NCBI GenBank assembly: GCA_033439295.1
Contig: JAVTLE010000010.1
Location: 1,178,001-1,242,000 of the forward strand
Reading direction: 5' to 3'
Length of the DNA stretch: 64,000 nucleotides
Source: Deuterostichococcus epilithicus
Lineage: Eukaryota > Chlorophyta > Trebouxiophyceae > Prasiolales > Stichococcaceae
The notes below the pieces were generated by a model that saw only the letters and a list, made by a program, of their open reading frames with translations, did no database searches and was not told the origin of the DNA. How positions within the stretch are numbered: the stretch's first letter is position 1; each line of letters begins with the position of its first letter. Below are positions 1-64,000 of this stretch, piece after piece. The translations under genes were made by a program, and so were the position numbers.

Positions 1-3000
1 GAACGGGCTGAGGGTGCGTCCGGCGGCAACAATGGCGGCAACAACGGCGGTGACCGTCGCCCACAGCAGCGGCCACAGGGACAGGACCAGCAGGACCGCC
101 GGCCGCAGCGCCCTCAGCAGCAGCAGCAGCGGCAAGGCGGCAATGGCGCAGCCGCACTAAACGGGCGTCCGCAGCAGCAGCAGCGTCCGCCCGCGGCGGG
201 AGCAGCGCCGCCTTCGACATCAGACCGCGGCCGGCGTGGCAGGCGTACCCGCGGCGGCGAGGCAGAGGACGGGTGAGTGACGCTATACAGCTGGCCTCTC
301 ACCACGCATCTGACGGAAAGCTGACTTCGACAGGGCGTGGCCCTCTGCACACCTGTGTGACGTGCGCCGTGGCGCTCCTCGCGTGCGCAGCCCTGTTTCG
401 AAACTCTCTGTGCCCATGTCGACAGGGCGGCGCGGCGAAAACGGCTGGAGATGGAGGCGAGCCGCCAGCGCACAGACGTGGGGCGGAGGCGCGAGACGCG
501 CGGCACTCGGCGGCGCGACCGCGCCATCGCGCGCGACGCGGCGGCGCCGGTGCGGCAGGACATCTTCGAGGTCGGCAGCGAGGGTCTGCCCGTCGAGGAG
601 CTGGCCAACAAGCTGGCGGTGCCGCCTGGCGAGGTCGTCAAGACTCTGTTTATGAAGGGCATCATGGTGCAAGTCAACCAGGCGGGTCCTCCCCGCTCAG
701 AACGAGCTGTGCCTGCTGTGCCTGCTGTGCCTGTGAGCACTCTGCTGTGTGCTGCCCTATCATCTGTATGCCCTGCCTTGCTTGCAGCCTGTCAGCTGCC
801 AGCTGCCCGAGGCAGGCGGAGGCATGGCTATGGGAGCTGTTTTTCGTTGTCTCGGGCAAGGCTGTCATGCAGTTCGGCCAGGCGGGAGTCACAGCGAGCC
901 GGCGGGAGTCACAGTGCTCGTTTTTCACCATCCCCCGCCCTCGACCCCACCTCGGCTGCAAAAGCACACCTGAATACGCATCGCCCACGTCAGACGCGCG
1001 CGGTTGAGATTGCTTCGCCATGCCGTTTGCCTGTAAAACCTCCTAAACCCTGCTGCAGGTGCTGGACCGGGACACGGTGCACATGGTGGTGGACGAATTC
1101 GAGGACGTGGAGATAGTTGACCGCGAGGCGGCCGCCTTGGAGGACTGGGCGCGCAAGACCACCGACTTCGTGGACGAGGAGGACCTCGACTTCTTGCTTC
1201 CGCGGCCCCCGGTCGTCACCATCATGGGCCACGTCGACCACGGGAAGGTGCGGCGGGCGGACATGGCTCGGGAGCTCTGGGTGCAGCGTGTGCTGTTCTC
1301 GCCGGTGACGCGGCAAGCCTGCCACGCCGCGGCTGCATGCATGGCAGCGTCACGTCTTGATGGCACACCCATCCCAGATGCGGGGCCCCTGTGACGGTCT
1401 CTCGGAATTTCACCTGAGCTGAATATTCGGTGCTGAACATGTTGACTGCTGACACCGCTGCATTCGCCGGGTTGCTCCGCTACAGGTCTACACTCTGTAT
1501 AGACATCAGTGGTTGATGAAATCACACTTTGTTTATTCTTTCTCTACTACCTGCAGACGTCGCTGCTGGACTTTGTGCGGAAGACCAAGGTGGCGGCCGG
1601 CGAGGCGGGCGGCATCACACAGGCCATCGGCGCATACACGGTGCAGGTGCCGCACGACGGCGAGAATGCGGCCATCACCTTCCTCGACACCCCGGGGCAC
1701 GAGGTGCGACGCCGCCTGTGTGTGCTGCTTGTTGCGGCCCTGCGTCGGGTGCAGCCACTTGCGTGTGCAAGCACCAAGACGAGAGCCTGGTCTCAAGAAG
1801 GCCCGCTGCGTACTGGCGAGTCGCGTGCAAGTTGCGGCGGGAGAGCCGGCAGGTTCGATCGCGTGCGGCGCCGTCGCGTCAGCGCGTGGCGCGTGCCCGC
1901 GTCTGGAGCCGCCGCGTCTCACGCGGCGCTCCCGCTGCAACGTCTGCAGGCTTTCAGCGCGATGCGCGCGCGCGGCACGAAGGTCACGGACGTGGCCGTC
2001 ATCGTGGTGGCGGCGGACGATGGGGTGCGGCCGCAGACGCAGGAGGCCATCAGCCACGCCAAGGCCGCCGGAGTGCCCATCATCATCGGCCTGAACAAGG
2101 CACGCTGCCTGCCTGCCTGCGTGTCAGCCCCGGCTCGGCCATGGGCGGCGGCCATGGAGGCAGGTCCTGCTGTGTGGGCGCCGTCCGTCTGCAAGTCGCA
2201 CGTCGCTGCTGGCGGGAGGACAGGCGCAGGCGAGACACCCGGCGCTGCTCCTCCAGGCACGAGGCTGCGTTTAGAAAGCTGGTTGACCAAGCATGATATC
2301 CGAAGACGCCTCCCCATCGCAGATCGACAAGGAGGGTGCGCAGCCGGAGCGGGTGAAGCAGGAGCTGGCGGACCTAGGGTTGCTGCCCGAGGAATGGGGC
2401 GGCCAGACCGCCATGGTCCCGGTGCGCTCGCTTTTGAACCTGAACAGCCGACGCCGCCTGGTCTCCGGGCGCTGCGTGAAATGTGTGCTGTTGAGATTGC
2501 ATGACAGGAGACCGCTCAGGAGCTGGGCAGCTCCGTTGTCCATCCCAGCGTTGTCTGCCTGTCACTTACGCCCTGAGCGGCAATGCCGAATGGCCCAGAC
2601 CTGTGAGCTTGCATGTTTTGGAATCAGGGACGGTTCCCCCTGCCTTTGCATCGTTCACTGCACTCAGCTGCAACCGCAACCCCTCTGACAAGGCCATCAC
2701 TCAGCTGCCATGTGCAAATCGCTACCATGTGGGTACCAGGACTAGGTACCCGAGCGGAGTCTGGTTTTGGTGAGGCACACATCAAACTACAAACCTCATC
2801 AGCACGCCCAGCTGACGGCGGCGTTCTCTGCCCTTGGCGACGCAGATCAGCGCCGAGGTCCGGCAGGGCGTGCATGCCCTGCTGCAGACGGTCTCTCTTG
2901 GCCGATGGCCTGCGGTTGAACCACGACAGAGGGCTGTCTCCCTGAACATGTTACACCACCCTCCGTGCAGATCAGTGCCGAGTTCGGGCAGGGGTTGGAC

Positions 3001-6000
3001 GACCCGCTGGAGACAATCCCTCTTGGCTGATGGTGTGCGGTTGCACCATGTCAGAGGAGTCCCTCCCTGAACATGTTGCCCCCATTCTCCACGCAGATCA
3101 GCGCCAAGTTCGGGCAGGGGGTGGACGACCTGCTGGAGACGATCCTGCTGCAGGCAGAGGTGGAGGAGCTGTCCGCCAACCCTGACCGCCCGGCGCGCGG
3201 CACCGTCATCGAAGCGCACCTGGACCGCCGCCGTGGCCCCGTCGCCTCGCTGCTGGTGCAGGCCGGCACCCTGCGCATCGGCGACATGGTCGTCGCCTCC
3301 GCCTCCTATGGCAAGGTGCCCACCCTGCTGCGTGGAAATGACCCCCTCCCCGACCGGTCTGGCAGGTTGCCATGGTGACACGCAAAACTTTGCACCAGCT
3401 GGTCGTCGCGTCCGTTTCATGCTTCAATTAGGCCAGTTGCGGACGTGTCTGGCGGAAGCGATGGCCCTCAGCCACCTGCTGCACCCTGAGCGTGCAGAGC
3501 GTAACAGCGCGCACGCTTATGACGATCTCCGGCCGCGTCTCCGTGCGCACCTCCAGGCCCTACACCCTAAACCCTAACCGAGCGCACGCCCCCGCAACGC
3601 AGGTCAAGTCGCTCACAGAGTCGACCGGCGACGTGGACTCAGCGACGCCGTCGTTGGCGGTCCAGATGGTGGGCCTCAACTCGGTGCCCACTGCTGGCGA
3701 TGAGTTCTACGTGTGCGAAGATGAGACGATGGCACGCAAGGCAGCGGAGCTCGCGGAAGACACCCAGGCAGGTTTCCAGTATGCGTCCTGAGGTGTTGAT
3801 CAGTGCGCATGAGTCTGAGGCGACTTGTGATGCTGGCTGGGGAGGGAGCGTGTGGCGCGAAAGCGGCCGGAGGCCGCTGCCGGGCAGCCGTAGCGGAACA
3901 ACTCTGGAGCGCCTGCTCGTGCTGCATCACATTCGCACGTTTGTGTACCTGAGTACCATGAACCTTCCCGCTGCGGTGGACGATCGTGTCCATCGAAGGG
4001 CTCCTGCGCACCTGCTGCCAGCCTGCTGGCTGACCAGCGGAGTGTCCCGACGTGAGCGTCCTCGCCCCACCCTGTGCAGCGCTTGGAGCGACTGGCGGCG
4101 TCGGCGGGCGGCGGCAACATCGTGACCACAAAGTCCTGGGCGTCCATGGACGACGACTCAGAGTCGCTGCAGCGCCTCAACGTCATCCTCAAGGTGCGGC
4201 ATTCATGTTCGACAAATCCTTCTCATACGCACCGCCCTCTGGGGTAGCAACACCAAACTGCGCCTGGCATGCAGCTACTTCACATGACGGGTGCTGGACT
4301 GGGTCACAGCGCAGGCGCCGTCTCACGACCGCCGAACGCACGGCAACACGAAGCGCAACCCCTGCCCTGAGATCCGTCCTCAAACCAGAGCCCTGTGCCC
4401 GGCCCACAGGCGGACGCGTCGGGGACAGTGGAGGCGGTCAAGGCGGCGCTGGGCGCGCTGCCGCAGGACTCTGTGCTGCTGCGCTTCCTGCTGGCGGCAC
4501 CCAACCAGATCACGACCTCCGACGTGGACCTGGCCGCCGCCTCGGAGGCCGTCATCCTAGGCTTCAATGCGGAGCCCTCGGAGGAGGTCGCCGCCTTCGC
4601 GAAGGAAAAGAGTGCGCTCCACCCTGCTGCCTTCCCAAAACTCAGGTCCGGCCTGCGGATGCTCCCGAGCCATCGCTGCAAGCGCTGCCTTTCCTGGTAA
4701 TGTGCTTGCGCTCAGGCAGGCTGCGCGTTGGCGCACTTGTGGCCGCTGCTGCTGATTGGCAAATGGTCGAAGGACTGTCAGCTCACACTGGCCATTCGGA
4801 TGCGCTTTATCGTAATTGATCTGACTTTATACAGCTGGCTGGCACTGTGCGGCCGGACACGACAGCCGCCCGTCACCAAAACTTCCGCTATCAGCTCGGC
4901 TCATGTGCGTCTGTCCTGCCCTGGGCTGCAGGCGTAACGCTGCGGTCGTACAACGTGATCTACGACCTGGTGGACGATGTTCGCGCTGCCATGGAGGGCC
5001 GCCTCAACACTATCGAGGAGCGCACTGAGATTGGCCAGGCCGAGGTGTGGCCCGCCCTTGACGTGGAAACCATGTCTCTTTCATCATCCACCTCCATTCC
5101 TCAATCATTCTGTACTTTGTTCTTGTGCCTCTGCTCCGTGGTGTTCGCCCTTCCGGAGCATCATCAAGCCCCGTCACCCTGGCGCTATGCGGCACCATGC
5201 ACCGAGCCTGCTGTGGCGCCGCGTCAGGGCGCCTCTGACCCATGGTGCCCTCTGGTCGAGTCGCACAACCGCGACAGGCCACTCACAAAGCCGCCTGTCC
5301 GCAAGCGCCTTTCCAGCATTACGCTGCGCCTTTGCGCCGTGTGCAGCCTTCCAGAGTTCTGGACGCGCATGCTGCCTGTTGGGTCCGGGCTGACCACACG
5401 CTGGCTGCTGGTTGCGCAGGTTCGGGCGACCTTCGGCTCCGGCAACCGCATCGTGGCGGGCTGCATGGTCAATGAGGGCGTGCTGCGCAAGGGCTGCTTC
5501 CTGGTCGTCAAGCGCGGCAAGAAGGTGCGGCGCTGTATGGCCGTGTGCTGCCGGCTCTATGACATGCAGATCTGCAGTCAGACTGACCCTCCTTGACAGA
5601 AGCGCTGCAGGACGGTCGCCAGAGTCGTAAGCGTGATCAAAGTGATCGCCCCTGCATTTGGCGGCAGCCAGCCTGAGGTCTCTCCGCTGAAGCTGACATG
5701 CTGCGTTTGGAAACCATCGTGGTGACTAAGTCTGAATTGATATTTGTTCACCTCTCGTCATGTGCACGGCGCCAGGTGGTGTTCGAGGGGCCGCTCACGT
5801 CGCTGCGGCGTGTGAAGGACGATGTGAAGGAGGTGTCGCACGGCCTGGAGTGCGGCATCCGCGTCGACGGCTTCACCGGCTGGCGCGAGGGCGATGCGGT
5901 CACGGCGTTCGCCGTCGCCGAGAAGCGGCGCACGCTGGAGGAGGCCGCTGAGGCGTCCGCTTCCATGGACGCCGCGCACGCCGCCTCCTTCAGCCTCGAC

Positions 6001-6012: not shown

Positions 6013-6536
6013 GGGCCGGGCGCAACGCTGGGTGGAGGGCGGGTGCGGCGTGGTGATTTCGCAAGATGGAGGGCGGGCGCCAGACTTTCATGTCTAGACA
6101 CAAGGGAGGTGGAACGAGCAGCGGCAGACACTGGGCGAGTGCATGGGTCGTCTGGCGGGACCTGGTTCTGATGACAAAGCTAGATGCCATGCATTGCAAC
6201 GCAACTGCTGCATTCTTGGTGGCCGCATTCCAATGTACTTGGTGCGATGTGGCAATGTGGGTGCGGCTGGCTCGTATGACACTGAACGTTGATATTTTCG
6301 GTCGTTTGGGCTGCATGACACAACGCTCTACCTAATTCGTTTCCGATGTGAGCTCTAGTGCCACCCAATCTGGTCACCTGGAAGTACGGCGCAATCGCAG
6401 CACCTTCGCTCGCACATATGCATAGGTACCTCTAGAAATCATACTTACTTCCTGCCTCGCTGCGAACAGATCGAAAATCCCACCATTTCTCCCACTGGCT
6501 CTACTGTGACATGCGCGCCATGCACCTGATATGGAA
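6013..6536. other. Intergenic, between two convergent gene ends
   Basis: Holds the 3' regions of the IF-2 gene (+) and the coiled-coil gene (-). I see no coding signal, no RNA gene and no clear polyadenylation word. The AT content is higher than in the flanking exons. Confidence 0.6.
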
Positions 6537-8704: not shown

Positions 8705-11700
8705 ATGTCGACAGGTCTCAAGCGGAAGCCGGTAATATTTCCCGTCCCGGCATCCCTCTGGAGGCAGCCAGGGCTGCTGTCTGTGCGTGCCCTGGTCAAC
8801 ATTAACCATGAAGCCTGGCAGCCGTGCTCCATGCCTTGGCCCCCCAGCTGGGTGATTTTTACTGTTGGAGGTGGACAGGCCTGCCACGGTGTTGTGGCAG
8901 CGGTTTCATATCACGGGCAGCCCGCAGCGCCCCAGACGCTGCGCTGCGCTGCGGGCTGCCCGTGATATGCAACGGATTTGTTGTGTAGCACTGCTCACTG
9001 AGCACTCATCTTGCGCGTGACGCAGTTCAAGATAGAACCATTCAAACACCCGCTGAAAGTGGACCCGCTGTGGGGAGGTGAGCAGGAATGCCATCTTTGC
9101 GCCTGCTGCTACTGTGTGCCAGCTCTGTTTGCCTGTGCATATCCCTGCAAGGCCTCACTCGAGACTGTTTCCGTATGCAGAGAAAACGTGGAAAGTGCTC
9201 GAGGATGCGATCCACGAGATCAACAACCACAATGCCAGCGGCCTCAGTTTCGAGGAGCTGTACAGGTGCGCTCGGTCTGCACACGGCACAGTACACGTTG
9301 CTGCTAACTGATGTCAGTGGCAGCGAAGCCCGAAAGACCATCGCGCAGCACTGCACAGCACGACGAGCTCACATAACACAGTCTCGGAAAGGTGACACAA
9401 AGATGACTCAACTTTGTCACTTCAACTATTCCTGCCTGCGCCGCAGGAACGCTTACAACATGGTCATCAACAAGTTTGGCGACCGGCTGTACAAGGGGCT
9501 GGTGGACACCATCACGGGGCACCTGCAGGACATTGCGGGCGCGATCGAGGAGGCGCAGGGCGAGAGCTTCCTGCGGGAGCTGAAAGCGCGGTGGGACAAC
9601 CACAACAAGTCCATGCAGATGATCCGCGACATCCTCATGGTGCGCCGCCGCCACAGAAAACAACAACAACAAAAGCCGCTGCCTCGCGAGGGTCAAGGAG
9701 TCCTCCCTCAGCGCTCAAGGCAGCCGCCAGTGCAAGGCGCGGTGGCTGCATGACGATACTGCTAGCAGCGGCATGGCCGGCGGGTCCTGCATGATGTTGT
9801 AGCCCCTGCCGCAGGGTATCACCTCGCGATTTTATGGTCAGCTGGCGCGGGCGTATCAACGAACCGGCAGCGAGCCAGCATTCCTTAGGCACCTGCTGCT
9901 GACACACGCCTCTGTGTCATTGTCGTGCAGTACATGGACCGCATTTATGTGAAGCACCAGAACAAGGTGCCGGTGCACCAGCTGGGGCTGAACTTGTGGC
10001 GCGACACGGTGGTGCGCTGCCCGCGCATCCGCGACCGGCTGCACGCCATCCTGCTGGACCTGGTCACCCGGGAGCGGTCGGGGGACGTCATCGACCGCTC
10101 CCTCATGCGCGCCACCACCATGGCAAGTGCCCGGTCGCCCCTGTTGCCCTGCCTCCGTGTGTTTCGGGGCGTCCAGGAGGTGTGCACATTGCAGGGGTGG
10201 GAACACCTCGTGCCTGCGCACTTGCTTGTGTCCCGTGGATGTTGGCAGATGTTGTCGTTGACATGGCCCTCAGCCACGGCGCTGCTGGCGGTTAGCCCAT
10301 CGAACCGAGGGCATGACTATCGGCGCCCTGTCGTCCAGGCCCAAGGCCAGGCCGGCGCGGCTATTGCTCAATTGAGACATGGCGCTGATTGTGGCGTTCT
10401 GCGCGCAGATGCTGGTGGATCTGGGGCATGATGTGTACCAGGACGAATTCGAGCGCGGCTTCCTGCAGACGGCAACCGAGGCATACCAGGTAGGTGCAAT
10501 CGGGCATCGCATGTTTGGATTTGGCACTGGGCCTGTCGCCTAGAGTGGCTGGCCGCAGCACCTGCCATAGCAGAAGGAGGGCCAGGGCAAGGGCGCACGG
10601 CGCTGCGCTCGCTGACTGGACTGCGCCCCCAAGCGTTGCAACAGCCCTGAGCCCCTTTTTCGCCTCGCCAGCGAAGTCAGATCCCGGGAGCAGGTTTCGG
10701 TCAGCGGCTGGCACCAGCCTGACCGATGGGCCGACAAGGCCCAGCCGGCGGCAGCGCCGCGAGTGCATCATCCGCGATCCTTTGTCGCGGCATCCAAGCT
10801 CAGGCAGTCCAAACTGAAAACCCTAAAACCCTTGTGCAGGCGGAGGCGCAGGAGTACCTGGCCGGGTGCGACGCGCCGGACTACCTGCGCAAGGCGGAGC
10901 GGCGGCTGGCGGAGGAGAGCGAGCGCGTGCGCAACTACATGGACCCGGGCTCCGACGCCAAGATCACACGCGTCGTCGAAACCGAGCTCATCCAGAAGCA
11001 GGTGCGGCGGCTTCCCCCTGCCACCAAAATTCCTGCTATGCAGTCCAGTACGCCGCACCTCTGAACCTGTGCTGCCCCTGAAACAGGCTCCGTGGATGCG
11101 CACCTGGCGGCGTGTCAGTCTGCAGATGATGGTAAACCCCGCTTGTCTGCGCATGCGTCAAGGCCATCCGTGTGCATACGCTAGTTGAGAGGCTGCTGAG
11201 GCCATCCGAGCCAGCCAGCCATCGCGAGCCTGTCACCTGGAGCTGCACGATTGTGGAGGACGCCACAGCGATGCAGTGTTTGCGCAACTGCTGTGGGGGT
11301 GCCCCCCACTCAGCACCGCCTCAACAACAGTCACACATGTGCCCCCTGGCGTGGCCTGCAAATGAAGACCCTGAGGGAGAAGGGGAACTCGGAGTTCAGC
11401 TCTTGACTGAAGACGCTGATGGAGACGCTGATGGAGACTTGTCCGCTGCCGCTGCGCGCAGATGAAGACGCTGATGGAGATGGAGAACTCGGGGTTCATA
11501 CCACTGATCGAGGGGCGCAAGTACGAGGACCTGGGCCGCATGTATGCGCTCTTCAAGCGTGTGCCCGGCGGTCTGGACCTGCTGCGCGCCACCATGGGCG
11601 CCTACATCCGCTCGACCGGCAAGGACCTCGTGCAGGCGCGAAGACCGCCACTTTTGCTCAGTGTTCAGGGTAGTCTGGGGAGCCCTGGCGCGCCCTGTGC

Positions 11701-14700
11701 CCCTTCAGTCCTCGGCTGTGACCCTTCACCTGCTGCTTGCTGCCTGAAGCTGAGTCGACCGAGGCAGAGCTGCTGCATCCTGCCTGTGTTCCATGTGCCT
11801 GCTCCGATGCGGCAATCATTGCGCGGCCAGCCGCTCCTCATTATGTGGGGCGCTGTCTCGTGGACGAAGTACCGCATCTGAGCGAGGCTGTCGGCGAGTC
11901 GGTGCAGTTCCAGCTGGCGCCGAGTGATCCAAGACACTTTGCGCTGGACTCCCTGCCATGACGACTGGAGGTCAGCGGGTTTTCAGGCACCGTGCCGATG
12001 ACGGCAGATTTCGACCGAGTTTTAAAACAGTTCGATTTTCGACAAAATCTCGATTACCCAACGCGCTGCGCGCAGGATCCGGAGCGGCTCAAGGACCCGG
12101 TGGAGTTCGTGCAGCAGCTGCTGGATGCCAAGGACAAGTTTGACGCGATCGTGTCGCGCGCCTTTGCCAACGACAAGGCCTTCCAGAACGCGCTGAACCA
12201 GGCCTTCGAGCACTTCATCAACCTCAACCAGCGGTCGCCGGAATACATCTCCCTGTTCATGGACGACAAGCTGCGCAAGGGCCTCAAGGTGACTCACCTT
12301 CTGTTTTATAACATGCACATTTCGCAGCCCGCTACACTTGTTCCTGAACGCTTGTGACGCCTCCACTCTGGCATCTGTTGCTCGTTGTACCAGCTGCCTG
12401 ATCGATCACCAACTGCCTGAGTTGTGACGTCTGCAGTGCTTCCGTGCATACACATGCTGCGATCCTACCTTCCGCCAGCCACACTCGTGCTGCCCATCAT
12501 GCGTCGACGGTCATGAGACGCATCCCGGTCAGCTGCAAGGCATCGAAAACACAACTCAACTGCGAGCCGTGCTGCTGTCATGTAAACCCACTCAAATCCT
12601 CCAAATACGCGACTGATTGAACAGCCTACTAAACTTCATTACAAAACCCTGCGCTCCCGCCCCCACAGGGCACCACAGAGGAGGAGGCGGAGCAGGTGCT
12701 GGACAAGGTCATGATGCTGTTCCGGTACCTGCAAGAGAAGGACATCTTCGAAAAGTACTACAAGCAGCACCTGGCCAAGCGGCTGCTGTCGGGGCGCACC
12801 GTGTCCGACGATGCCGAGCGCTCGCTGCTCGTCAAGCTCAAGACGGAGTGCGGCTACCAGGTGCGCTACTACGAGGCTGCTCGGGGTTTCATCTGTCAAT
12901 TTTCCAGGGTCTCCGGGGTGGTGTACCCGCAATGCAGCGCCACCGATGGGCGCCATCCTGTGACGGCTTGTCCATGTGGCACACACATCTGCCCTGCATA
13001 CGGAGGCTGACAGGCGAGTCGCTGCAGCTCTCGGGCATGTTCGACACCCGCAGTGCTCCAGCTTGTCTTGACGGTGACGAGTTTTGCGACCCAACACTGA
13101 CCCTGTTCTGTGTGATTCTCCCCGTAGTTCACGAGCAAGCTGGAGAGCATGTTCAACGACATTAAGACCAGCCGCGACTCCATGCTGGCCTTCAAGGGGC
13201 ACCAGGCATCCGCCGCCGCCGCGTCCGCTGCAGACCACGACATCGACCTGTCAGTTCAAGTGCGGCACATTCGTCTTGCTCTGCCATGCACAGTCTCTTG
13301 CGAACTCTTCCTGAATTCAGATGTGCTGTTGCTTTGAATACCCCATAGTGGATTGCGCTGCATCGACTGCACCGCAGAGCAATGGAGTCGTTGTGCCTGA
13401 CATCGGGACCAGCTCACAAGATGAGACAGCGCAGAGCTGGGCTCCTCAGGACCAACACAACGTCCCCCTCTAAGCTTCCCTCTTTGTGTGTCACCCCCGC
13501 AGGTGCTGACGACAGGTTCGTGGCCAACGCAGTCGGCGGCGCAGTGCAGCCTGCCGCGGGAGATGGAGCGCTGCTGCACAGAGTTCCAGGCCTACTACCT
13601 GCGTGCGCACTCGGGGCGCAAGCTGACCTGGCAGTCCAACATGGGCAGCGCCGACCTGAAGGCCACCTTTGGCTCCAAGCGGCACGAGCTGAACGTGTCC
13701 ACCTACCAGGCGCGCCTCTCATCCTGATGCACCTCTTGTCGGGATGAGTTCTTATGAGTTGTTCGGGCTGCGGTTCAGCCCGGGGTGGCGGCCGCCTCCT
13801 GCGACTGCTGGCAAGCTGCTGCGTGTGCAGTCCCGCAGCTGTGCTCGCCACGCGCTGGCAGCCGTCGACGAGCCGCTTTATGACGCTCAGCTGCCTGGCC
13901 TTGCTGCCGTAGCCGCTGCATCGCTGCTCCACAAGTGCCACAGCTGCCCTTGAGTCAGGCCGCTGGGAGCTCTAGGCAATTTTGTCTTACCTCTGCGAAC
14001 CAGGCCCTGCAGTAGGCGTGCATCCTGCCTGCTGTTCGACGGTCCCTACAACAGACTACCCAACCTTTGCGGCTTGGCCCTGCCTGCAGGCGTGCATCCT
14101 GCTGCTGTTCAACGAGTCGGAGTCGCTGTCCTTCCGCGACATCCTGGCCGCCACCGGCATCCCGCCCGCCGAGCTCAAGCGCAACCTGCAGTCGCTGGCC
14201 TGCGTCAAGGTGCGGTGTTGACCCTTCCAGAGCGGCCGCCACACCCCCTCATCACGAGCCTCGCGAGGCACCGGCGGGCGGCCTCTGGAGAGTCTCTCCA
14301 CTTCACGGCCTGCCTCTGCTGCTGTGTTCAGAGACTAGAGCAACACCTCATGCGAGGAATCACGTCGACAGTCTCCGGCTGCATCCCCCCCTCCGAGCAT
14401 GATCCCTCGTGGAGGACCACCCGCATCCACCCCAGCACCTGAAGCCCCAGTGTGCAACACCCGCAGGGCAAGAACGTGCTGCGGAAGGAGCCGATGGGCA
14501 AAGAGGTGGAGGACGGCGACGCCTTCTGCGTCAACGACAGCTTTGCCTCCAAGTTCTACAAGGCTCGTCGACTTCTCTGTTTTCTGATCCTTTATCATCC
14601 GACATTCATCTAGAATTCAAAGTTCGTTGCAATTAGAAGCCTCGTTCTGGTCATTTCATGTTCACACCAGTTACAGTTGCTTGCATGCCATCTCCTGTGC

Positions 14701-15920: not shown

Positions 15921-18900
15921 ATGGACACGCTGGAGCAGCAGCCAGTACTTTTGGGAGGCTTATCGCAGTCGAACATCACAAACCAGCGGTTGCCGGAGCA
16001 GCCTGCCCAGGAGGAGGCCGATCCTGCAGTGCCTCACGAACAGCATCAGGAGGAGTCAGTGTCTGCACCGGCGCCTGAGCCGCAAACAGATCAGCCGAAG
16101 GTGGCAATCGCACCACCGGCAGCAGACCGCGCGGCAGCTGCGGCCGACCCTGAGTCGGTGCCTCAGGAGGATGCCGCGCCTGCGCCTTCCGCGGCGCCCG
16201 CCTCAGCAGCCCAGCCCGCTCCCGCTACGGCTCCTGCAGCAGCCGCAGTGGAAAGTGACCCGGAGGACGAGCTGCCGCTGGCGCAACGACGGCTCAGCAA
16301 CGTGAATCTCGCTGCTAAAAACCCAGGTGAGCGCGCCCATCTGACACTCAGCCGCCCCTTTAATGGCTTTGAAAACATGCCTGCGTATTGAGGTAACTGT
16401 AAGGAAAAGTTGACAACATGAACGCGACAACATCCTCTAGAGTCAGACTAGTCTACATCATACAAGGGTGCAGCGTGCCCTGTCTAACAGTCAGCGGCTT
16501 GTCAACGGCTTCGACACATTCTGTGTGGCAACGGCGACACCAAGGGCGACACCAAGAAAACCACAACATCTTGCATCTGAACAGACTTTTCTACACTCAT
16601 ATGAGAGTGCAGTGCATTGCTGGAAGGTTGAAACTAATGTCAAATTGCCGTCCATGCAGTGGCGCAGCCGAAGTCGAAGCCGAAGCCGCAGCAGAAGCAG
16701 GCAGCCAAGCCGCGCGCAGCGGCACCGGCCAAGCGGAAGCTGGAGAACGGGTCGGCGTCGAAGGCCAAGCCGGCGGCCAGCGGCACCAAGAACGGCGCCG
16801 CCAAAAAGGCCAAGCCGGCGGCCAATGGCGCCGCCCCCAAGCGGAAGCGGGCCACCGTCCTCAGCTCAGAGGATGACGAGGAGGAGTCGTCTGCCAGCGA
16901 GGAGGAGGCGGAAACTGACGAGGAGGAGGTGATCCGGCCGAAGAAGAAGCGGGAGGCAGCCCCCCAGCAGGCGGCGCCCAAGAGCAGGGTGAGACTCGTT
17001 GGTGCACCCGAGCGTCTGCGTCTGTGCAATTCCCGGCGACTGGCTTGGTGCTGCTCACAGACTCCACAGGATGGGAGGGTGCATGTGGACGTGCGTCATT
17101 CGTTGGCGGCTCCGGACCTGCATCCCATCCTCAGTCGTTACCGCATGCACCGAGTCTGGGTTCAGTGTGGCACCAGAGGCGCGGATCAAGGCGGCATAGT
17201 AGGCAACAGCGTCGGCTGGCGCCCTGCGGCACGCTGATACCCCCCAGCACATGCTGCAGCCATGCAAGCTACTGAACAAGCAATGGCCTACCCTCCTTGT
17301 ACCAATCTTCCGCTGTTCCGGGCAGGCGCAGGAGGCGTCGCAGCGGGCGCGCAGCGAGCCGGAGAACAGGGAGACAAAGTGGACCACCCTGGAGCATGCC
17401 GGCGTGCTGTTCCCGCCCGAGTACGAGCCGCACGGCATCAAGATGCTGTACGAGGGCAAACCGGTGGACCTCACCCCGGAACAGGTGAGGTTGTCGGAGC
17501 TTCAAAGTGTGTGCTTCCGCTGGCCCTTGCTGCCAGCTGCCAGCAACATGTGCGCGCGCATGTGCACGAGCGGGGCGCCTGAAGGGCGGGAGGGTGCAAG
17601 TGGTGTGTGCTGCAGCAGGCCTGTTGCGGACCCCTGCTGGCTGCCAAGTTGGAGGACATTGGGCCGGCCGGGGCTTGCTGCGTCTGTGAACAGTCGCATG
17701 TCGAGCTGCGCAGCGGCCGCCATTTGCTGCCGGCCACACATGGGTGGTCTGCAATGGATGCAGCGGCGCCAAGCAAGCTGCAGCAGCATGGCTGCTGCGG
17801 CACTGCTGATCTCTTTGCTCTGTGTTGAGACAGACCTGTGCTTTGTCTCCACATGAATATACTCCTGATGGGGATCTGCTCCCGCCGCTTGAACAGGAGG
17901 AGGTGGCGACGTTTTACGCGGTCATGATCAGGACGGACTACGTGAACAAGCCCACCTTCAACAAAAACTTCTGGGAGGGCTTCCGCCAGGTGCTGGGCAA
18001 GAAGCATGTCGTCCAGGACCTGAAGAAGTGCGATTTCGAGGCCATCTACAGCCACTACGAGGCGGAGCGCGAGGCCAAGAAGAAACTGTCCAAGCCGGTG
18101 CGGCAATTTCCAAAGCCCTGTGTAGCAGGACCTGCGGCTGTTACGGCGTCTGCCACAACTGCCATACCGCCTAGCGTCCTCTCCGTGGGCCCTCCGGCCG
18201 CATTCGGCCTGCTGACAAGCGCCATGACGGATGCGGAGCCGGCATGAAGGGTGCCACAGCAACAGAGCCCCGCGGTCGCCGCGGCCGCTGCGACCGCTGC
18301 AGCAGATGCACGCTTTCACCCAATGCCGTGACAGATGCTCTGCCATTCTGCGCGCTGCTCCAACCCGACTCGTTCTTGTTCTAAAGCTTGTCCGAAAAGG
18401 GTTTGGGTGTTGAAAAAACAGGTGAAGGACGCCGCCAAAGCGGAGAAGCTGGAGAAGGAGGCCAAGTACATGACGGCCAAGGTGGACGGCAAAGTGGAGC
18501 AGGTGCAGCTTCCTGCCTCCTGCATGTTCAGCCTGTGCCAAAATGGACAGCGGGCTGGAGCAGGAGCAGCTTCCTGCTTCCAATTTGCTGGTCTGGTGCA
18601 GTGCTGCTGCTCTGTAGCTGTAACACTGCTTGCTGCAGATACCGGCGTTCTGGCTGCGCTGCAATTACAGCGCCCTGCTTGCTGGGTGCCCTGTCGATGG
18701 GCTGCATCTCGGCTGGCCATGCCCCCCCACTCGTGGGATATGACACAGTCTGACACAGAGCTTGCAGCATGTGCAGGAGCCAGCCCCTGCGAAAGTCGTG
18801 CGGTGGCCGTGGTTACTTGCCGCCATCGTTGCCGATGAGTTTTCATAGGCTTATTTCATGATATGCAGGTCGGCAACTTCAGGGTAGAGCCGCCGGGGCT

Positions 18901-21900
18901 GTTCCGTGGGCGGGGGGAGCACCCCAAGATGGGTAAGATCAAGCGCCGCATCTACCCCAAGGACATCACCATCAACATCGGCAAGGGCGTGCCCGTCCCG
19001 GAGCACCCCTACGAGGGCCAGGACTGGCGCGAGGTGCGAGCTCCACGCATTTGCTGAAGAGCTTGAGCGCAGACGGCGCGGCGCCGACTCCCCAAGGCAC
19101 AGCAGAGGGTCGTTGGCACCCTCTCGTGGGCGGCTCAAACAACGCGGCCAGCCACAACAAATACCACCAGAGCATTGAGGACCGTCCGAGGCATTGGGGC
19201 TGTCTGTCGTTCAAATTTGATATGCGCTCACCTGGAGACGGCGCACCCCCGCCCGCACGCGCAGGTGCGGCACGACAACACGGTGACATGGCTGGCCTTC
19301 TGGCACGACCCCATCAGCCCCAGCAGCTTCAAGTACGTGTGGCTGGCGGCCAACAGCGGCTTCAAGTCCGACAACGACCTGGCCAAGTACGAAAAGGCGC
19401 GCAAGCTCAAGTCCTTCATCGGCCCCATCCGGTGCGCGGCAGGAGCCCCTTCCACTCGATGTCCTCCTTCCGTCCGCTTTCCAAACTCGTGGTCCTTCTC
19501 CTGGGCTGCCGCCGGCAGCCGCGGTCGACGCCCGGCCTGCAGCAGACTGAAGCACCGGTGCACCGAAGAGGAAGCTTTCTTCTCAGGGACCAGTCTGATG
19601 GCCAGCCTGGACGCAGAGCCTCGAGGTGCTGTCTGGCTGTCTGGCTGTCCTCCCTTGCTGGAGGTTGCATCGGTGATGCTCACTGCCGTCAACTGTCACT
19701 GGCCTCCGACTCGATTCCGACTCTCTGTTGGCCCTCCCGCGCAGCGCCAAGTACGAGAAGGACTGGCTGTCGAAGGAGCAGCGCACGCGGCAGATCGCGA
19801 CGGCGCTCTACTTCATCGACATCCTGGCGCTGCGGGCGGGTCATGAGAAGGACGAAGACGAGGCCGACACCGTCGGCTGCTGCAACCTCAAGGTGGGGTG
19901 CCCCCGGCGCCACTTGTGCATGCGGCCAGGCGCAATGTGTTGCCGGCAAGCGCCGTGTGAAGCGCTGCGCGGCCGCGGCCGTGCAGCAGCGGCCACGAGC
20001 GGAGTGATGACCGTCGTCCGCTCGCGTTCCTGCTCCGCTCTGCCGGACAGGCTCACACCCGTTGCGATGCTTCGCCTCCGCTCTTCCCTCGCCCTGAGCC
20101 CTGAGACATGATCCAGCCCTGATCTCGCGGAGGCTGCAAATGCGACTGCAAATGCGGCTGCATACGCGCGCAGGCAGAGAATGTGAAGGTGCTGACGGAT
20201 GCGCTCCACCCCAACACCATCGAGTTCGACTTCCTGGGCAAGGACAGCGTGCAGTACCAGAAGGATGTGGAGGTGCACCCTGCAGTGTACAAAAACATCT
20301 CCAACTGGATCGGCCACACCGCCAGCGGCAAACGTGCGTTGCTGGCTCGGTCTGGACTCCCCACTGCCCAAGTTCCCCCGGCTGTGTGCGGCGCCCTGCC
20401 GAGCATTGTAGGGGGAGTTTGTCTTTTGAGATGCTCGCACGTGTGCAGCTCGAGGGACCCCGCATCAAGACGGAACTGTCGCGCCTTGGTGAGGGCCGCT
20501 TCCCTAGGCGACCAGGCGCCGCGACGGACGGCGCCGACAGCCATGCCTGGCAACCCCGCATCACTGCCTCCGCCGCCTGCACGCAGGCAAGAAGCCGGAG
20601 GAGCAGCTGTTCGACGCCTTTGACGCGCAGGACCTGAACAAGGTGCTCAAGGAGTGCATGGACGGGCTGTCCGCCAAGGTGCGCACCTACACCCAAATGC
20701 TAAAGCCTAAAGTGAGCCCATGCACCCTTGCATCCTCGAGTGCCGTGGTGACGGCAAGCCGGCAGGTTGCATCCCTATGAATGACGTGTGCGTGCTGTCT
20801 GAGGTGGGCAGTCATCCCCTTGGACACACTGTCACTAACACGCTCGGCGTCCAGCTGGGACTCACACTTGCGCACGCGCTCGAGCCTACACTCGCACGGC
20901 ATCAGTGCTGGAGGGACGGGCCAGCAGAGTTGCCGCTGGCGTGCGATTGTGAAAACTTTTCGAGGAAGCAGCTGACGCTTCGTGCGGCGCAGGTGTTCCG
21001 CACGTACAACGCGTCGGTGACGCTGGACCGGCTGCTGTCGGAGCAGGAGGCGGCAGAGGCGGCAACAAAGCAGGAGGAGTCGGCGGCGGAGGCTGAGAAG
21101 CGAGCCCCACCGACCATCGACGCACGCAAGGCTGACTACGACCGCGCCAACAAGGAGGTCCGTAGATGTTTTGTCTTGACAGCGTCTCACGGGATCTAGC
21201 GGTGTTCACTAGCGGTTGAGCGGAAGGCGACGAGGGTCCCTGGCCTGAGACGTGCAAGGCCGACACAACACTGCGTGATCAAGGAGTGAGCAGGGTTTTG
21301 GCTCCAGCGAGGGGGATCTTGAATTGAGGTGAGAAGGGGCCTCCCAAAGTCTGCTTGTCAGCGCCAAAGCGTGGCCGACCACGACTGCGCCGGCAACGAG
21401 GTGCGCAGGGGCTTTCTGGGCTGAGTGGCATCCCACACACTGCACTGGCAATTCAGCCGGATGCACGGCTGCATGGCTAGATGCCGCCTGGCAGTCATGA
21501 GGCTCATCTGCCCGCCTGGGCGACTTGGGCAGTGCTGCGCCCATGGCGAGGTCCTCGTCAGACAACAGCACGATGGTCAGTCTGCAGAGGAGTCAAGTCC
21601 CATCGAATCACAGCAAGAAGCTAGATACCTACCAACCAGCCCGTCAAAGCGCAGCAAGCCGCTCAACACCAACCAACACACCCCCTCCACCTCTGGACAG
21701 GTGGCCATCCTGTGCAACCACCAGCGCGCTGTGGGCAAGACGCACGACTCGCAGATGGAGCGGCTGCAGGAGAAGCTGGCGGGCCTGCGGGAGGGGCTGG
21801 AGCAGCTGCACCAGGACCTGAAGCTGGCGAGGGCCGGCAAGACCAAGCCGGTGGAAGACAAGGAGGGCAAGGTCAAGCAAGTCAAGCTGGAGCCCGAAGC

Positions 21901-35267: not shown

Positions 35268-38200
35268 TCAGAGCGTGTCCAGGTCAAAGTCTGAACCGCT
35301 GTCGTCCGTGCACTGCGCAGCCGCATCCGCCAGCACCTGCTTCTGCCTCTTAGCCTGCTTCTTCTGGCTGCGGACCTTGTGTGGGTTGAGCTGCCCCTCC
35401 TCCGAGTACAGCACCTCCGCCTGCTTGCGGCCCCTGCAGCAGCAAAGTCTCGGTATGAGACGGATGGCAGCGCCCGCATGGTGAGCCCACATTGTGATGT
35501 GGACACGACACCTTACCGGGCGCCTCCACAGCGCCGGCACTTGGCGCTGGTGAGAAAGGGCATGGCAGCAGGAGTGCCCAATGGCTGTCACACACGCCCT
35601 CGCTCACTTCGGCAGCGGCTGCGCCTTTGCCGTCGGCTGCGGCCCGTCGGTGTCATCCATCGCGTCGCTGCCCTCCACGTCTAACGCCGCCATGGGCTCC
35701 ACGCCGCCAGCGGGCTCAGCGCTGGAAACGTCGGCCGGTCGCGCCGCCGCCGCTGCCATGCCTTCAAGGTCGATCGCCGCAGCGGCACCGGCGCTAGGCG
35801 CAGCGAAGTGGGCGCCGTCCTCCGCCGGCGCCAGGCCCGCCAACACCGCTGACTGATCCACCTGCAATACGTGTGCGGGAGGTGTCAGCTTCTCCCTCAA
35901 ACCCAAGCCGTGCATGCGGAGCACTCAGGGCCTGATTGCCACGATCCTGATCTGACTGTGCAACCGCGTTTCCTGCTTGGAAGTGTTGTCAGAAGCAAAG
36001 CAGCCTTGTGCCGACAAAAGATGTCTGGGAGCGAGTCTGCAAGTTGCCCTGCATGCGTGGATGGACCGACCCCGCAGCTAATTCCACGCTGCTGAGCCAC
36101 GGTTCAGGGCCGACAGCCCAACCCCAATTTCCGCCAGCTCACCGTGTCAGCGCTGAAGGCGGCGCTCCAGTCGGTCACGATGGCCGCCGCCGCGTGATCG
36201 TCATTCTGTCGTACAGGCGGCTCCGTGTAGTAGGGAATGCGGCCGTCGTTCCAGTCTGTCAGCACCGTGCGCGCCGCAGCGTCCACGTTGACGGTGCCGC
36301 CCTGGTGCGGAAGGCAGTTGCATGAATTGTGATCGTCTTCCCGTGGTGCAGCTCGGAACAGGCGATGCAGCTCGGGACAGGCGATGCGGATTGATGCACA
36401 TGGTTGCGGGTCGGTTCAACACTGTGGACGGGCGCCAAGGCTGCGGTGTGGCGGACTTTGCCGGGAACCACAGACCGACGTGTGGGACGCTTCAGGAAGG
36501 CCCCAACATCGACGCCGCCGGTGTGCCGCCACAAAGGTGAGCGCCGTCACCAAAGCCCTAGCCCATCAATTCGTGGAGTCAGCTGACAAAGAGGTACAGA
36601 TGAGGCGGGTGCCCCACCTTGGCGAGCTTGCCGCGAGAGGCGGCGACGAGCTGCAGGAACTGATCGGCGTCGCGGAAGGCAGGGATCTTGTACACCGTCA
36701 TGAGCTGCTCCGCCGGGCACTTCGACACGATCTCCGCCACCGGCAGCGCCGGATCCTCCAGCTGCTCCACCTGAGCTCAGTTTCACCAGGTTGTCCAGGA
36801 GGAAATGTCGATACAGTTTCTTGTGTGCACAGCGGCAGCGCCGGGTCTGCCAGATGCTGAAGCTGCGCTCGGGTCTGCACTGCTTCACACATGACCTGAA
36901 GGTGTCATTGCACTGTGTTGCACCGAATGGTGTGTGGTCACGCCGTGCTTGGCCAAAGCGATATCCAGGCAAGCCGGACAGCAAGCCAGACAGGACAGCA
37001 GGAATGTTGGTGCGTCTGCAAATTGTTGAGACTCAGGTTCATGCAGCTTGGTTCCTTTGCACCGACACAAGCGTAGCCACACTCTGCAGTCAGCAGCCGA
37101 CTGCGCGTACGGGACAGACCTTGACGCAATTGCGCAACGCGGAAGCGGCGGCGCTGGCGGCGGCGCTGAACACGATGCCGGGGCTGTCCAGCAGCTTGAT
37201 GTGCTTGTCCAGATGCACCTGTTCGGCATCTCAATTTTCGCGGGAGTGCAACCGGAGACCATCTGCACAGGGTCAGCCAGCAGCCTGGCTGCTCGCAGTG
37301 CAGTACGAGCATGCATTTGCAGAACCATTGTGCCTTGGCACTGTGCACCGACTTCATTCACTGCAAGAATGCATCTGCGCTGTGTCTGGGCGGCAGCACA
37401 CCTCCTGCACGGAGGTCGTGACGCCGGGCGTGTTCCCAACGGCCGCGACGCGGCCACGCTTCAGGCTGTTGATCAGCGAGCTCTTGCCCACGTTGGGCAG
37501 CCCGATGATGCCTGTCAAGCGTGGCAAAAGCACTCATCAAAGAGCCTTGAGCCTTGTGTCCTGCCACCGGAGGTGCAGGCTTGCACACCAGCAATGCCGC
37601 AGCGGGGACAGAATGCCGCACCGCAGCACATGGGCACGTCAGGGCGCCCAGAGGCTGCAGCATGCACCTATGAGAGAGCCAGCGCTTCAGGCAGCCTGCA
37701 TCACACAGCTTCACGCACCCACGGTGATGGCGGTCTTGAGGCCGGAGTTGCGCGCGTAGTTCTTCAACAGCTGCAGCAGCGTGTCTGCGCCCAGGCACTC
37801 GCTGCCCGCCATGAACTTGCTGCCATCGCCGCCGGCGGCGCCGCCGCCGCCTCCCTTCCGCTTGGCGCCCTTGCCGCCCGGCACCGCCCGCTTGGACGAC
37901 AGATTGGCCGCCTGGGCACGGGCCAAACACACATGTTGTGTGGTGTGATGTGATGTGCCAGTGGCTTCTGCTTCTGCTTCTGCTGCTGCCTCCACTCCAC
38001 AGGCAGCCATCACGACAGCCGTCGGAAGTGCCGACTGCGGCTGATGCCCCACACAACCTGCCGACCAGTCGATGACAAGGGAGGGCAACAGAGTTTGTCG
38101 AAGCAGCGGAGTCGCAGTGGCTCCCACCTGCTTCTGTGTGGAGCACTTGAAAGCGACCGTCGGCAGCTCCGCCCGCAGGTAGGCCAGCCACTTCTCTGCA

Positions 38201-43211: not shown

Positions 43212-49204
<5,993 letters not shown>

Positions 49205-52700: not shown

Positions 52701-53290
52701 ACCCTGTGCAAAGATGAGGACAGGACATCATGCGTCTGCTGCACAGTTTCTGCTGCACAGTTTCTGGCAACCGCAAGACAAATGCAAGCAAGACAACAGG
52801 TAGAGATGAAACAGTGCCACGGTTTGAAACTCACTGGGCTGGGCTGGCTGCTGCTGCTTCTGCAGAAGCCTGCGCGTCCGTGACTATGTCTGTTGGCTGC
52901 TCCTGTGGGTCAGTGCAAGCAGTGTGAGCCGCGCAGACAAGCATGAGCAGGGATAGCCTCCTCTTGGTGTGCTACGGTCGCTCGAATCGATGATACATGG
53001 CATGCACGAACTGACGCACCTCCGCGTCGCCAGGGGCAGCTGCCGTCGCATCCCCAGCAGCAGCGGGGGAGCCCTCCTGCTGTTGCGTGTCTGCAACGGG
53101 CGCTTCCTCGGCCGGAGCCTCCTCTGCCTCGTAGTCGACAATCTCCTGCAACCCAGCAGCTCAAAGACTGTCAGACATGTGCCAAGTGTTGGTGGCTGAG
53201 GCGATTGCGTTGCAATGTAGCATGCGCTTGCCGCATGAGAGCCTGACGCCGCACCTCATCCGCCTGATGCTCGACCTCCTCGGCGCTCAT
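49705..53290 (-). CDS. hnRNP Q/LIF2-like RNA-binding protein, three RRMs
   Basis: Start at 53290; the first exon is 36 bases (MSAEEVEHQADE). An acidic Ala/Glu-rich head (EIVDYEAEEAPAEEAPVADT) precedes three RRMs. RRM1: VFVGGIPKTATVTDEQLLEF, then LNRGYGFIKYNS (about 52540-52200). RRM2: NRLYLGNLPKTMSKDELEAQ, then NRGFCFLEFYNH (about 51945-51545). RRM3: KSIFIGNLPDTANEAKLREI, then REFGFVHYVDRASV (about 51350-51040). The last four exons form a Gly-rich tail with GGF/GGY/RGG and a long GGM-type array (about 49980-49840), ending QRYAPY. This order of acidic head, three RRMs and RGG tail is that of SYNCRIP/hnRNP R in animals and LIF2 in plants, which act in splicing, mRNA stability and, in plants, chromatin regulation. 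About 12 exons. Confidence 0.9.
49840..49980 (-). repeat. GGM-type coding repeat in the hnRNP tail
   Basis: The last exon encodes an array of short Gly-Gly-Met units (GGMGAGGMGAGGMGG and variants) from near-identical 12-15 base repeats. This is an in-frame low-complexity repeat, probably length-variable, of the kind that promotes RNA-protein condensates. Confidence 0.8.
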
Positions 53291-61700: not shown

Positions 61701-64000
61701 GCGAAGTCAAACGACACGCGGTTACACCCTCTCAAGGCTTCATGCCTTCAAGCAGCAGCATCAAATCGCCGAGCCTGCCATCGACATGTGTTAGTGACGC
61801 TGCAATGTGCTGCAGAGTCAGGGGAACTTGCTGTAGAGCCAGGGCACCTGGGCCCTGCCCCGGCTGCCAAAGGGCGCCGCCGCACCTCTGCAGCTGCTTG
61901 GAGGTGATGCCCAGAATGCCGCAATATGCTGTGCAGCGCCGACAGCTTTGGTCCCTCACCCAAAACTCTCGGGGCGACATGCACTTTTGCAGCTGCTTGG
62001 AGGCGACGGAGGATTGGGGGTGACGGAGGTGACGCCGCTGTCGTGCTGTACAGAGTAAGGAGTCCAGCCCTTCTGATCCGACTTCGTTAGTGCTTTTCGA
62101 GAGGCCGCACCTCTGAAGCTGCTTGGAGGTGATGGAGGGGATGCCCAGGTGCACCGTCTCGCTGCCGACGCTCAGTTTCACATCAAAGTCGTGGTGCACC
62201 ACCACCTCCCCATCCTGCGGATACATAAAGGTTAAAAGGGTGTTCGTGAGCCACTTTGGCTGTCAGAAGTCACTGCAGCCGCAGCTGTCATGTTCGAAAC
62301 GCAAGTTCTCGTTGGAGGCAGGTCACTGGGACTGGACTGCCGTCGCAGGGGAACCCCCTGGCAGCACCGGCAGGGGAATTGTACAAGCACAAGGGGAGGG
62401 AGCGCACGCGACAGATGTGGCAATCGAATTCGATGAAGTCGCTGCGTCACGGAGCAGACGGGACATCAGCCGGGGTGCTGTGTCAGTGCAGGCGGTCTCA
62501 GCAGCACTGCAGGCAGTCTCAACAGCACTGCAGGCGGAGCCGGCGGCCGACAGCACCCGAGCGCTGAGCATGGCCCGACAGCTTTCAGCGGCCCACCTGT
62601 GGTTCGTGGCGGCCTTGAGGAAGGACAGAATGGTGTTCTCCCGCACGTGGTGGTCCTTCACCTTGGACGCGCCCGAGCCACGGTGCCTGCGGGAATGCAC
62701 AGGACATCAGCACCTGCGGCCGCAGTATCAGCAGGGCCACAATTGAACGAATCTGGCACTTGCACATGCATACACCACTTGCAAGAGGCCAGTTGCAAGA
62801 GGCGGTGCGAGGCATAAACCTTCAGCACTCAAGCGTCTGCACCGCATGCGCTGGCTGCCAGACACATCCGCAGACTCCGACGCCGGCCAGCTCACGTGTG
62901 TATGGGACGGTGCCACAACAAGGGGGCCAAACCAAAAGGGGCCGTACCCAATGTCCAGGGTGGAGCTGACGACCTCGGGCGTCCAGCGCTGGCGCTGCAC
63001 GCTGCTCAGGTCGTTGGCTGCATAGTCCGCCGCCGTGACCACCAGGTACGCAGCCCTGAAGGTGCCCGCGTACTGCGCAACGATGCGGTGGCGCATGAGC
63101 TTGAGGTTTGAGGACATGGCGAGTGAGCAGAGGGAGATGCACTTGCTCAGAAAGCAGGTGTCCAGGTGGTGTCTCCCCCCGCACATGCCCGACGCATGGA
63201 TGACGGGCTCTGCAGGCTTCCAAGGGTCAGCAACATGGCGAAGCTGGCAACACCATGAGCCGTGGCGTCATGAGCGTCACGGTGATGCGGCCCTCCAGGT
63301 CCGCCAGTGTCGCCGCGGAGATGAAGGCCCTCGCCAGCAGCGTGCCATCCGTCTTGGCCACTACGTCCTGAGGGTGAAAATCAGACTACGTGTGAGGGCG
63401 TCTGCTGAGCTGCCGTGCAGTCTGCCAGCCACGGCTTGTGGCTTGGCGGCAACGCCGTGGACAAGCACTCGCTCAGGTGCAATCGACCGAAGGTGCGCTC
63501 GGAAGGCATCATCCTCGAAAGTCTGCCCCAAGGTCATGGTAGTCAATACGCAGAGTTTACGCTACCAAACCCGGCGGCTGTGAGGAACAAGCCAACACTG
63601 CAAAGCTGCCCGCAAGCGGCAAAGCTGACAGGATACAACAAGCGGACAGCTTACCACACGGAAGGCGAGGGCGTCCAGCGACTGCCCGTTCATGAGGTAG
63701 GTGGAGCCGCTGGTTGGGTGCAGCTCGCACGCATTGCCATTGCCTGCAGTGCCACACGCTCCACTGTCTGCTCTCCTCATCCTAATGATGGCGCGTGCTG
63801 AACTGCCGGAATGGCTTGCAGCCGTGCCGCAGCGGTCAGCAGGCCGGTGACGTCTCCTGGACGACCCCTATCGCATGGCCGGGGGCGCTGCTGTTGCTGT
63901 AGCGCCTTGCACAAACCCCGCTCAAGCTCTGAATGCAGACACCACGAGGTACCAGGCTCGAGGAGGGCGCACCGTTCTCGATGAAGCCCACTTCATGCGC
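58757..64000 (-). CDS. Glycerophosphodiester phosphodiesterase, GPCPD1-like (5' partial)
   Basis: Metal-dependent hydrolase that splits glycerophosphocholine and related diesters to glycerol-3-phosphate and the alcohol. The N-terminal exons run off the window. Visible in order: LMNGQSLDALAFRVV (about 63690), TDGTLLARAFISAATLADLE (about 63340), a C2-like strand region ending WTPEVVSSTLDIG (about 63000), joined in frame to catalytic HRGSGAS and VRENTILSFLKAA (about 62695-62600), DFIEFDCHI (about 62440), DGEVVVHHDFDVKLSV (62217 onward), LWLGFNIEIKYPTDAEL (about 60880), RKVIFSSFDPDVATLVRLKQ (about 60450), CTNGLYIFSWGDIS-like and VDAIIMDDVAKLTK, stop at 58757. The His, Glu-x-Asp and His-Asp of the GDPD active site are present. 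The LDIG-HRG-x-G junction matches human GPCPD1, whose N-terminus has a starch-binding CBM20 module; whether this one does cannot be seen here. At least 14 exons. Confidence 0.88.
61880..62148 (-). repeat. Triplicated exon end in a GDPD intron
   Basis: On the gene's strand the live exon ends ...ITSKQLQ with donor AG|GTGCGG (62148-62105). Two copies follow in the intron: about 62015-61985 (SVASKQLQK) and 61920-61880 (GITSKQLQR, donor AGGTGCGG intact). All three contain CCTCCAAGCAGCTGC or CCTCCAAGCAGCTTC. Spacing is about 110-125 bases. The last copy keeps a full donor-like site, so alternative use is possible. Confidence 0.9.
62483..62542. repeat. Short tandem repeat in a GDPD intron
   Basis: Two adjacent 21-base units on the + strand, GTCTCAGCAGCACTGCAGGC and GTCTCAACAGCACTGCAGGC, preceded by a partial third. 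Non-coding by the present gene model. Confidence 0.75.

What the first reader, a model, noticed from the sequence alone, without database searches (positions are those of the whole stretch)
2841..62148. Introns repeatedly carry decayed tandem copies of the neighbouring exon edge
Across five unrelated genes, an intron holds one or two tandem near-copies of the adjoining exon boundary with its splice site: IF-2 (2841-3160), CUL3 (11358-11498, 14002-14117), TOP1 (18478-18581, probably 21126-21420), V-ATPase D (33462-33740, 34008-34188) and GDPD (61880-62148). Some duplicate the exon start with its acceptor, others the exon end with its donor. Spacing is mostly 50-125 bases and decay ranges from fresh to heavy. 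Intron gain or growth through tandem duplication of a splice-site segment is a known idea; this density in one 64-kb window suggests an active, genome-wide process in this lineage. It would create competing splice sites and raw material for new introns.
Basis: partly seen in the sequence, partly recalled or inferred. Interest (0 to 1): 0.85.

Follow-up and report, generated by a model that had tools for sequence, protein, structure and literature searches.

The report
Introns lengthened by duplicated exon edges
In this stretch of what looks like a green-alga genome, about one intron in eleven carries worn-down copies of the edge of its neighbouring exon, most likely left by short tandem duplications across the splice site that made the intron longer; the kind of mutation is known, the density is striking.

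Summary
Own-intron matches exceed chance: 18 of 226 exon edges reach p<0.01, against 3 of 226 for the reverse-complemented intron and 1 of 186 for an intron four further on. Of 17 repeats with spacing 40-300, 16 belong to these ten introns; six resampled windows gave 0-1 each.

Best reading: tandem duplications of about 60-240 bp spanning a splice junction. The outer site keeps working; the inner copy becomes intron and decays. These introns are longer (median 409 against 237; 300 after subtraction). Mismatches are roughly even across codon positions. Intron gain is not supported. Intron-side homology exists (Fisher p=4e-4) but is weaker than a simple tandem model predicts (p=0.002-0.02).

Unresolved: at that threshold no repeat lies wholly away from exon edges in non-coding DNA; differential decay or something specific to splice junctions. 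'Genome-wide' could not be tested.

The parts
2842..3145 (+). IF-2 intron 2422-3096: two intronic copies (acceptor + about 48 nt of exon start) before the functional acceptor; exon begins 3097
   Evidence: junction matches the IF-2 protein alignment without insertion
11340..11498 (+). CUL3 intron 11002-11461: copy of acceptor plus exon start (exon-like part 11362-11398), second partial copy 11408-11437, functional exon 11462
   Evidence: junction aligns to CUL3 without gap
13989..14118 (+). CUL3 intron 13710-14089: copy of acceptor plus exon start (exon-like 14016-14044), functional exon 14090
18476..18581 (+). TOP1 intron 18503-18868: copy of exon end plus donor; copied donor GT changed to GA
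   Evidence: (intron-side homology p=0.009); junction aligns; p=0.025 in the repeat
21130..21408 (+). TOP1 intron 21158-21700: weak, decayed copy of exon end plus donor at 21373-21408; copied donor still GTGCGC
   Evidence: junction aligns; exon-only test p=0.057
33457..33732 (+). V-ATPase D intron 33259-33671: two copies (boundaries at 33463 and 33561) of acceptor plus exon start; possible third older copy upstream; functional exon 33672
34006..34183 (+). V-ATPase D intron 33792-34129: copy of acceptor plus about 51 nt exon start (34012-34062), functional exon 34130
61879..62145 (-). GDPD intron 62110-61680: two copies of exon end plus donor (first intron-like base 61984 and 61885); functional donor at 62110
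36738..36870 (-).
   Evidence: exon-only p=0.015
47214..47368 (-).

Best explanation
Short tandem duplications (about 60-240 bp) that happened to span an exon-intron junction. Two equal splice sites result; splicing that keeps the outer one leaves the protein unchanged, so the inner copy of exon edge plus site becomes intron and drifts. The intron grows by one unit. Existing repeats then favour further units (IF-2, V-ATPase D). Shown: direct repeats spanning the edge, longer introns, decay without clear regard to codon position, proteins that align across seven of the ten junctions. Inferred: the duplication step, which site the cell uses, and neutrality.
For: Own-intron excess with controls; census 16 of 17 repeats at these edges, resampled windows 0-1. 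Intron-side homology at the predicted offset: 5 of 11 outer copies p<0.05, Fisher p=4e-4; both young inner pairs (IF-2, V-ATPase D) at the test floor, p=0.005. Intron length 409 vs 237 (p=1.7e-6), 300 after subtraction (p=0.075). Mismatches 27/165, 18/163, 28/163 by codon position. Spliced IF-2, CUL3, TOP1 and V-ATPase D proteins align to solved relatives with no insertion at their seven junctions; the GDPD, GNL3-like and phototropin junctions were not tested that way.
Against: Six of 11 outer copies show no significant intron-side homology, clearest for IF-2, CUL3 11002 and phototropin (p 0.65-0.87); the average is below the simulated tandem model (Fisher 0.002-0.02). No repeat of this spacing at score>=15 lies wholly in non-edge introns or intergenic DNA (one chance-level pair, 61352/61407, at score 13), although a blind process should leave about 31-46% there (my arithmetic).
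Confidence: 0.7

Rival explanations
1. Short copies of exon edge plus splice site, born without the intron half (break repair with filler DNA, or template switching), placed 20-180 nt into the intron.
For: Homology stops at or near the splice site in IF-2 c1, CUL3 11002 and phototropin, and just after the donor in the GDPD copies; intron side weaker than the tandem simulation.
Against: Pooled intron-side homology is above chance; blind copying should also leave exon-internal pieces in introns, and no clear one was found.
Confidence: 0.15
2. The copies are kept by selection as decoy or regulatory splice sites or as alternative exons.
For: 5 of 13 copied sites score as well as or better than the functional one; 3 of 13 would give an open in-frame insertion; the edge-only distribution.
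Against: 8 of 13 copied sites are weaker, 10 of 13 give a stop or frameshift, mismatches are roughly even across codon positions.
Confidence: 0.08
3. Assembly artefact or joined haplotypes.
For: Nine isolated N in the window show some ambiguity.
Against: Copies differ from the exon by about 4-26%, at different ages, at splice junctions, with no N in them.
Confidence: 0.03
4. Intron gain by tandem duplication (Rogers model).
For: Same class of mutation; the potato RdRp case began with a duplication across an intron-exon boundary (PMC4974935); 5 of 224 gain-signature tests above the 99% level against 2.2 expected.
Against: Four of those five lie in low-complexity genes; the copies lie inside introns with their own pair of sites.
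Confidence: 0.04

Closest known systems
Potato RdRp tandem duplication (PMC4974935; passages seen, parts of the abstract among them)
   Same: A tandem duplication containing the 3' part of an intron and the 5' part of the next exon, with putative branch site, tract and acceptor
   Different: There a new intron arose in the duplicated region; here protein alignments fit use of the outer site, so the old intron lengthened. Here donor-side cases exist too, and ten introns in one 64-kb window
Rogers tandem genomic duplication model of intron gain (AGGT in an exon); reviewed in PMC3443670 (passages)
   Same: Tandem duplication supplies a second splice site
   Different: The unit here spans an existing junction and shows no sign of making a new intron
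Drosophila near intron pairs from sliding or tandem duplication (PMC2891723; passages)
   Same: Short regional tandem duplication changes gene structure
   Different: There intron positions are new; here I have no sign of a changed position, though without relatives it was not tested
Tandem exon duplication and mutually exclusive exons (PMC9013439; passages)
   Same: Exon-like sequence in the neighbouring intron
   Different: Only one edge is copied here, and most copies do not keep a reading frame

Membership tests
Tandem duplication across a splice junction | Direct copy of the exon edge with its splice site in the adjoining intron, above chance | tested here: met
Tandem duplication across a splice junction | Intron-side half of the unit is duplicated too, at the same offset | tested here: inconclusive
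   Pooled p=4e-4 but only 5 of 11 outer copies p<0.05, and below simulation
Tandem duplication across a splice junction | Intron is longer by the duplicated length | tested here: met
   (length comparison only; no empty allele available)
Intron gain by tandem duplication | Intron start matches downstream exon start, or intron end matches upstream exon end | tested here: not met
   5 of 224 against 2.2 expected, four of the five in low-complexity genes; none of the ten introns is among the four best shown for either side
Intron gain by tandem duplication | Intron absent at that position in relatives | not testable with these tools
   no relatives found
Mutually exclusive exons | Copy keeps frame and both ends of the exon | tested here: not met
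   One edge copied; 10 of 13 give stop or frameshift
Decoy or alternative splice sites in use | Spliced reads at the copied sites | not testable with these tools
   no RNA data

The most novel reading that the evidence does not exclude
In this lineage a duplication process is specific to splice junctions (for instance breaks or replication slips tied to co-transcriptional splicing or R-loops), or junction copies are actively retained, so that introns grow mainly from their own exon edges. That none of the ten non-coding repeat loci found at the census threshold lies away from an edge fits this.
Probability: 0.18. Interest if true: 0.85.

Novelty: new variant of a known kind. Interest (0 to 1): 0.52.

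Why it matters
Why introns have the lengths they do, and where intron sequence comes from, is largely open. Here 10 of 113 modelled introns (9%) show an addition with an identifiable source, and the exonic half gives each event a rough clock. If the density holds genome-wide, a simple count in annotated green-alga genomes would give a rate of intron growth and test whether duplication is blind to splice sites.

Tried and rejected
Relatives: CUL3, TOP1 and V-ATPase D proteins in viral contigs and V-ATPase D, CUL3 in genome contigs gave no relative. First gene-finder settings over-split genes; stricter penalties were used. Gene models are mine and imperfect: neighbouring genes are chained in one model (gaps of 900 nt or more were left out of the intron set), one IF-2 junction near 1305-1556 brings an insertion against homologues, a few of the 113 introns (such as 7631-7684 and 15198-15291) are doubtful, and the phototropin acceptor is probably 6 nt earlier in the transcript than modelled (my reading of the LOV motif, recalled). 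A first impression that homology always stops sharply at the splice site was weakened by gapped, anchored tests. Low-complexity hits (NUP160 gene, Gly-rich RNA-binding gene, 15198-15291) were set aside: 42 of 226 edges dropped in one count. One exon-internal match in TOP1 (17351-17454, p=0.0035) was taken as chance, since about 3.6 of 226 are expected below p=0.01 by that null. TOP1 18503 is not among the 34 best rows, where exon sequence alone was used. In one search a further comparison with the next intron was computed but not printed, so I have no result from it. Checkpoint note 2 says 6 of 11 outer copies with p<0.05; one search shows 5, as given here. Intron gain, mutually exclusive exons and assembly artefact rejected as above. 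Literature: nine searches bore on this question (one search was on GC-AG introns). In the listed titles and abstract starts I saw no description of such a density of junction-spanning copies in an alga. I opened five papers and saw passages only; subscription papers are mostly not held.
Full report
What the window is. The 64-kb window is 63% G+C with nine isolated N. An ad hoc gene finder, Pfam and PDB sequence searches give IF-2, CUL3, TOP1, a NUP160-like gene, V-ATPase subunit D, a p24 gene, a GNL3-like GTPase, a phototropin (PAS plus kinase; the name is my reading), an RNA-binding gene (my reading of the sequence, no call) and GDPD. Phototropin and G+C content suggest a green alga; this is inference. 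The models hold 113 introns under 900 nt, mean 256, median 244. Alignments of the spliced IF-2, CUL3, TOP1 and V-ATPase D proteins to solved relatives run across the seven junctions of interest in those genes without insertion, which supports the outer sites as the functional ones. The GDPD, GNL3-like and phototropin junctions were not tested this way.

Observation. Direct copies of the exon edge and its splice site are present in all eight introns listed and in two more. In total 14 copies lie in ten introns: six introns with acceptor copies (IF-2, CUL3 twice, V-ATPase D twice, GNL3-like) and four with donor copies (TOP1 twice, GDPD, phototropin). Spacings run from 43 (the second CUL3 copy) to 251 (across two IF-2 units); the main ones are 61-243.

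More than chance. Each exon edge of up to 80 nt was aligned with its own intron and with length-matched pieces of other introns. At p<0.01 there were 19 of 226 and, in a repeat, 18 of 226, against about 2.3 expected. Controls: reverse complement of the own intron 3 of 226; intron four further in the same gene model 1 of 186. After dropping 42 edges in low-complexity genes, 12 of 184 remain, nine of them in the ten introns. In one search all ten introns are among the 19; the other nine are five low-complexity edges and four weak ones (introns 9640, 14210, 23611, 60167). In the repeat TOP1 18503 fell to p=0.025. With exon sequence alone, 15 of 226 pairs had p<0.01 against about 3.6 by the null calibration; seven of the 15 are these introns, seven are in low-complexity genes and one is an exon-internal TOP1 match taken as chance. 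GNL3-like (0.015) and TOP1 21158 (0.057) are weaker, and TOP1 18503 is not in the 34 rows shown.

Census. An ungapped repeat census with spacing 40-300 and simple sequence masked found 17 repeats at score 15 or more. Sixteen belong to the ten introns (three of them between copies of one family) and one is exon-exon in the Gly-rich gene. None lies wholly in intron or intergenic DNA outside these families. Six resampled windows gave 0, 0, 0, 1, 1, 0. At score 13, 24 repeats appear, among them one intron-interior pair (61352/61407), and the controls give 2-6.

Anatomy: tandem or short copy? In a tandem duplication of length p with v bases of exon, p-v bases of intron must be duplicated as well, and both of those copies are free to drift. 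The young inner pairs of IF-2 and V-ATPase D show this clearly (p=0.005 each, the floor of the test). For 11 outer copies, with an alignment anchored at the splice site and real introns as control, five have p<0.05 (CUL3 13710 0.014, V-ATPase D second intron 0.019, GNL3-like 0.048, TOP1 18503 0.009, GDPD far copy 0.015); six do not (IF-2 0.87, CUL3 11002 0.65, V-ATPase D c1 0.28, TOP1 21158 0.22, GDPD near copy 0.17, phototropin 0.73). Fisher over the 11 gives p=4e-4. The two GDPD rows share an intron and are not fully independent. So intron-side homology exists, but the mean score (10.0) is well under the 18-20 expected by simulation from the exon-side decay; the shortfall has Fisher p=0.002-0.02 over four settings. 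Either some copies were born short, or the intron half, which carries branch-point and tract signals, is lost faster than neutral.

Consequences. Introns with copies have median length 409 against 237 for the others (p=1.7e-6); after subtracting the duplicated length, 300 (p=0.075). Longer introns also offer more room for a match, so part of this difference could be ascertainment. Mismatches between copy and exon are 27/165, 18/163 and 28/163 at codon positions 1, 2 and 3: roughly even, as expected of non-coding drift. Of 13 copied splice sites scored (the second CUL3 copy was not), eight score below the functional one and five equal or exceed it; four have lost the canonical dinucleotide (two AG, one GT to GA, one GT to GC). 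If used, 10 of 13 would bring a stop or frameshift and three an open insertion. The intron-gain signature passed the 99% control level in 5 of 224 tests against 2.2 expected, four of the five in low-complexity genes (all).

Edge bias. A simulation of blind tandem duplication with neutral decay, together with target sizes (27.9 kb of edge placements, 15.3 kb of intron-interior and 16.7 kb of other non-coding DNA), gives (my arithmetic) about 46% of detectable loci away from edges for mixed ages and about 31% if most are old. Zero of ten is then improbable at about 0.002-0.024. The model is crude, treats all edge placements as viable, and the sample is small; smaller-period repeats do occur elsewhere, for example 38 bp at 7377-7459. 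I hold this as a lead, not a result.

Relation to known work. The closest published case I saw is the potato RdRp duplication crossing an intron-exon boundary (PMC4974935, passages), in which a new intron arose. The Rogers model and its in-vivo test are reviewed in PMC3443670 (passages). Drosophila examples are in PMC2891723 (passages). The type of mutation is therefore known; the density, the two-sidedness and the outcome (intron lengthening without sign of gain) make this a variant worth a genome-wide count.

Limits. Gene models are computed, not annotated. No genome, relative, RNA or read data were available, so origin, age, use and generality are inferred.

Noticed in passing
window, 113 introns under 900 nt: 18 of 113 modelled introns start with GC instead of GT, including three of the five V-ATPase D introns under 900 nt, where the protein aligns well; an unusually high share if confirmed.
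   Followed up: partly
33320-33400: Possible further, much older copy of the V-ATPase D exon edge upstream of the two clear ones (alignment p=0.02).
   Followed up: partly
11408-11438: Second CUL3 exon-edge copy carries its own internal 12-bp duplication.
   Followed up: no
7377-7459: 38-bp tandem duplication in the stretch between the IF-2 and CUL3 models, the clearest longer repeat not at an exon edge.
   Followed up: no
33541-33700: V-ATPase D copy 2 and the exon are nearly identical for about 50 nt around the junction but differ strongly in the next 20 nt of exon; local gene conversion is possible.
   Followed up: no
36347-36387, 52735-52766, 62487-62537, 62775-62803: Short-period (14-21 bp) tandem repeats inside introns.
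   Followed up: no
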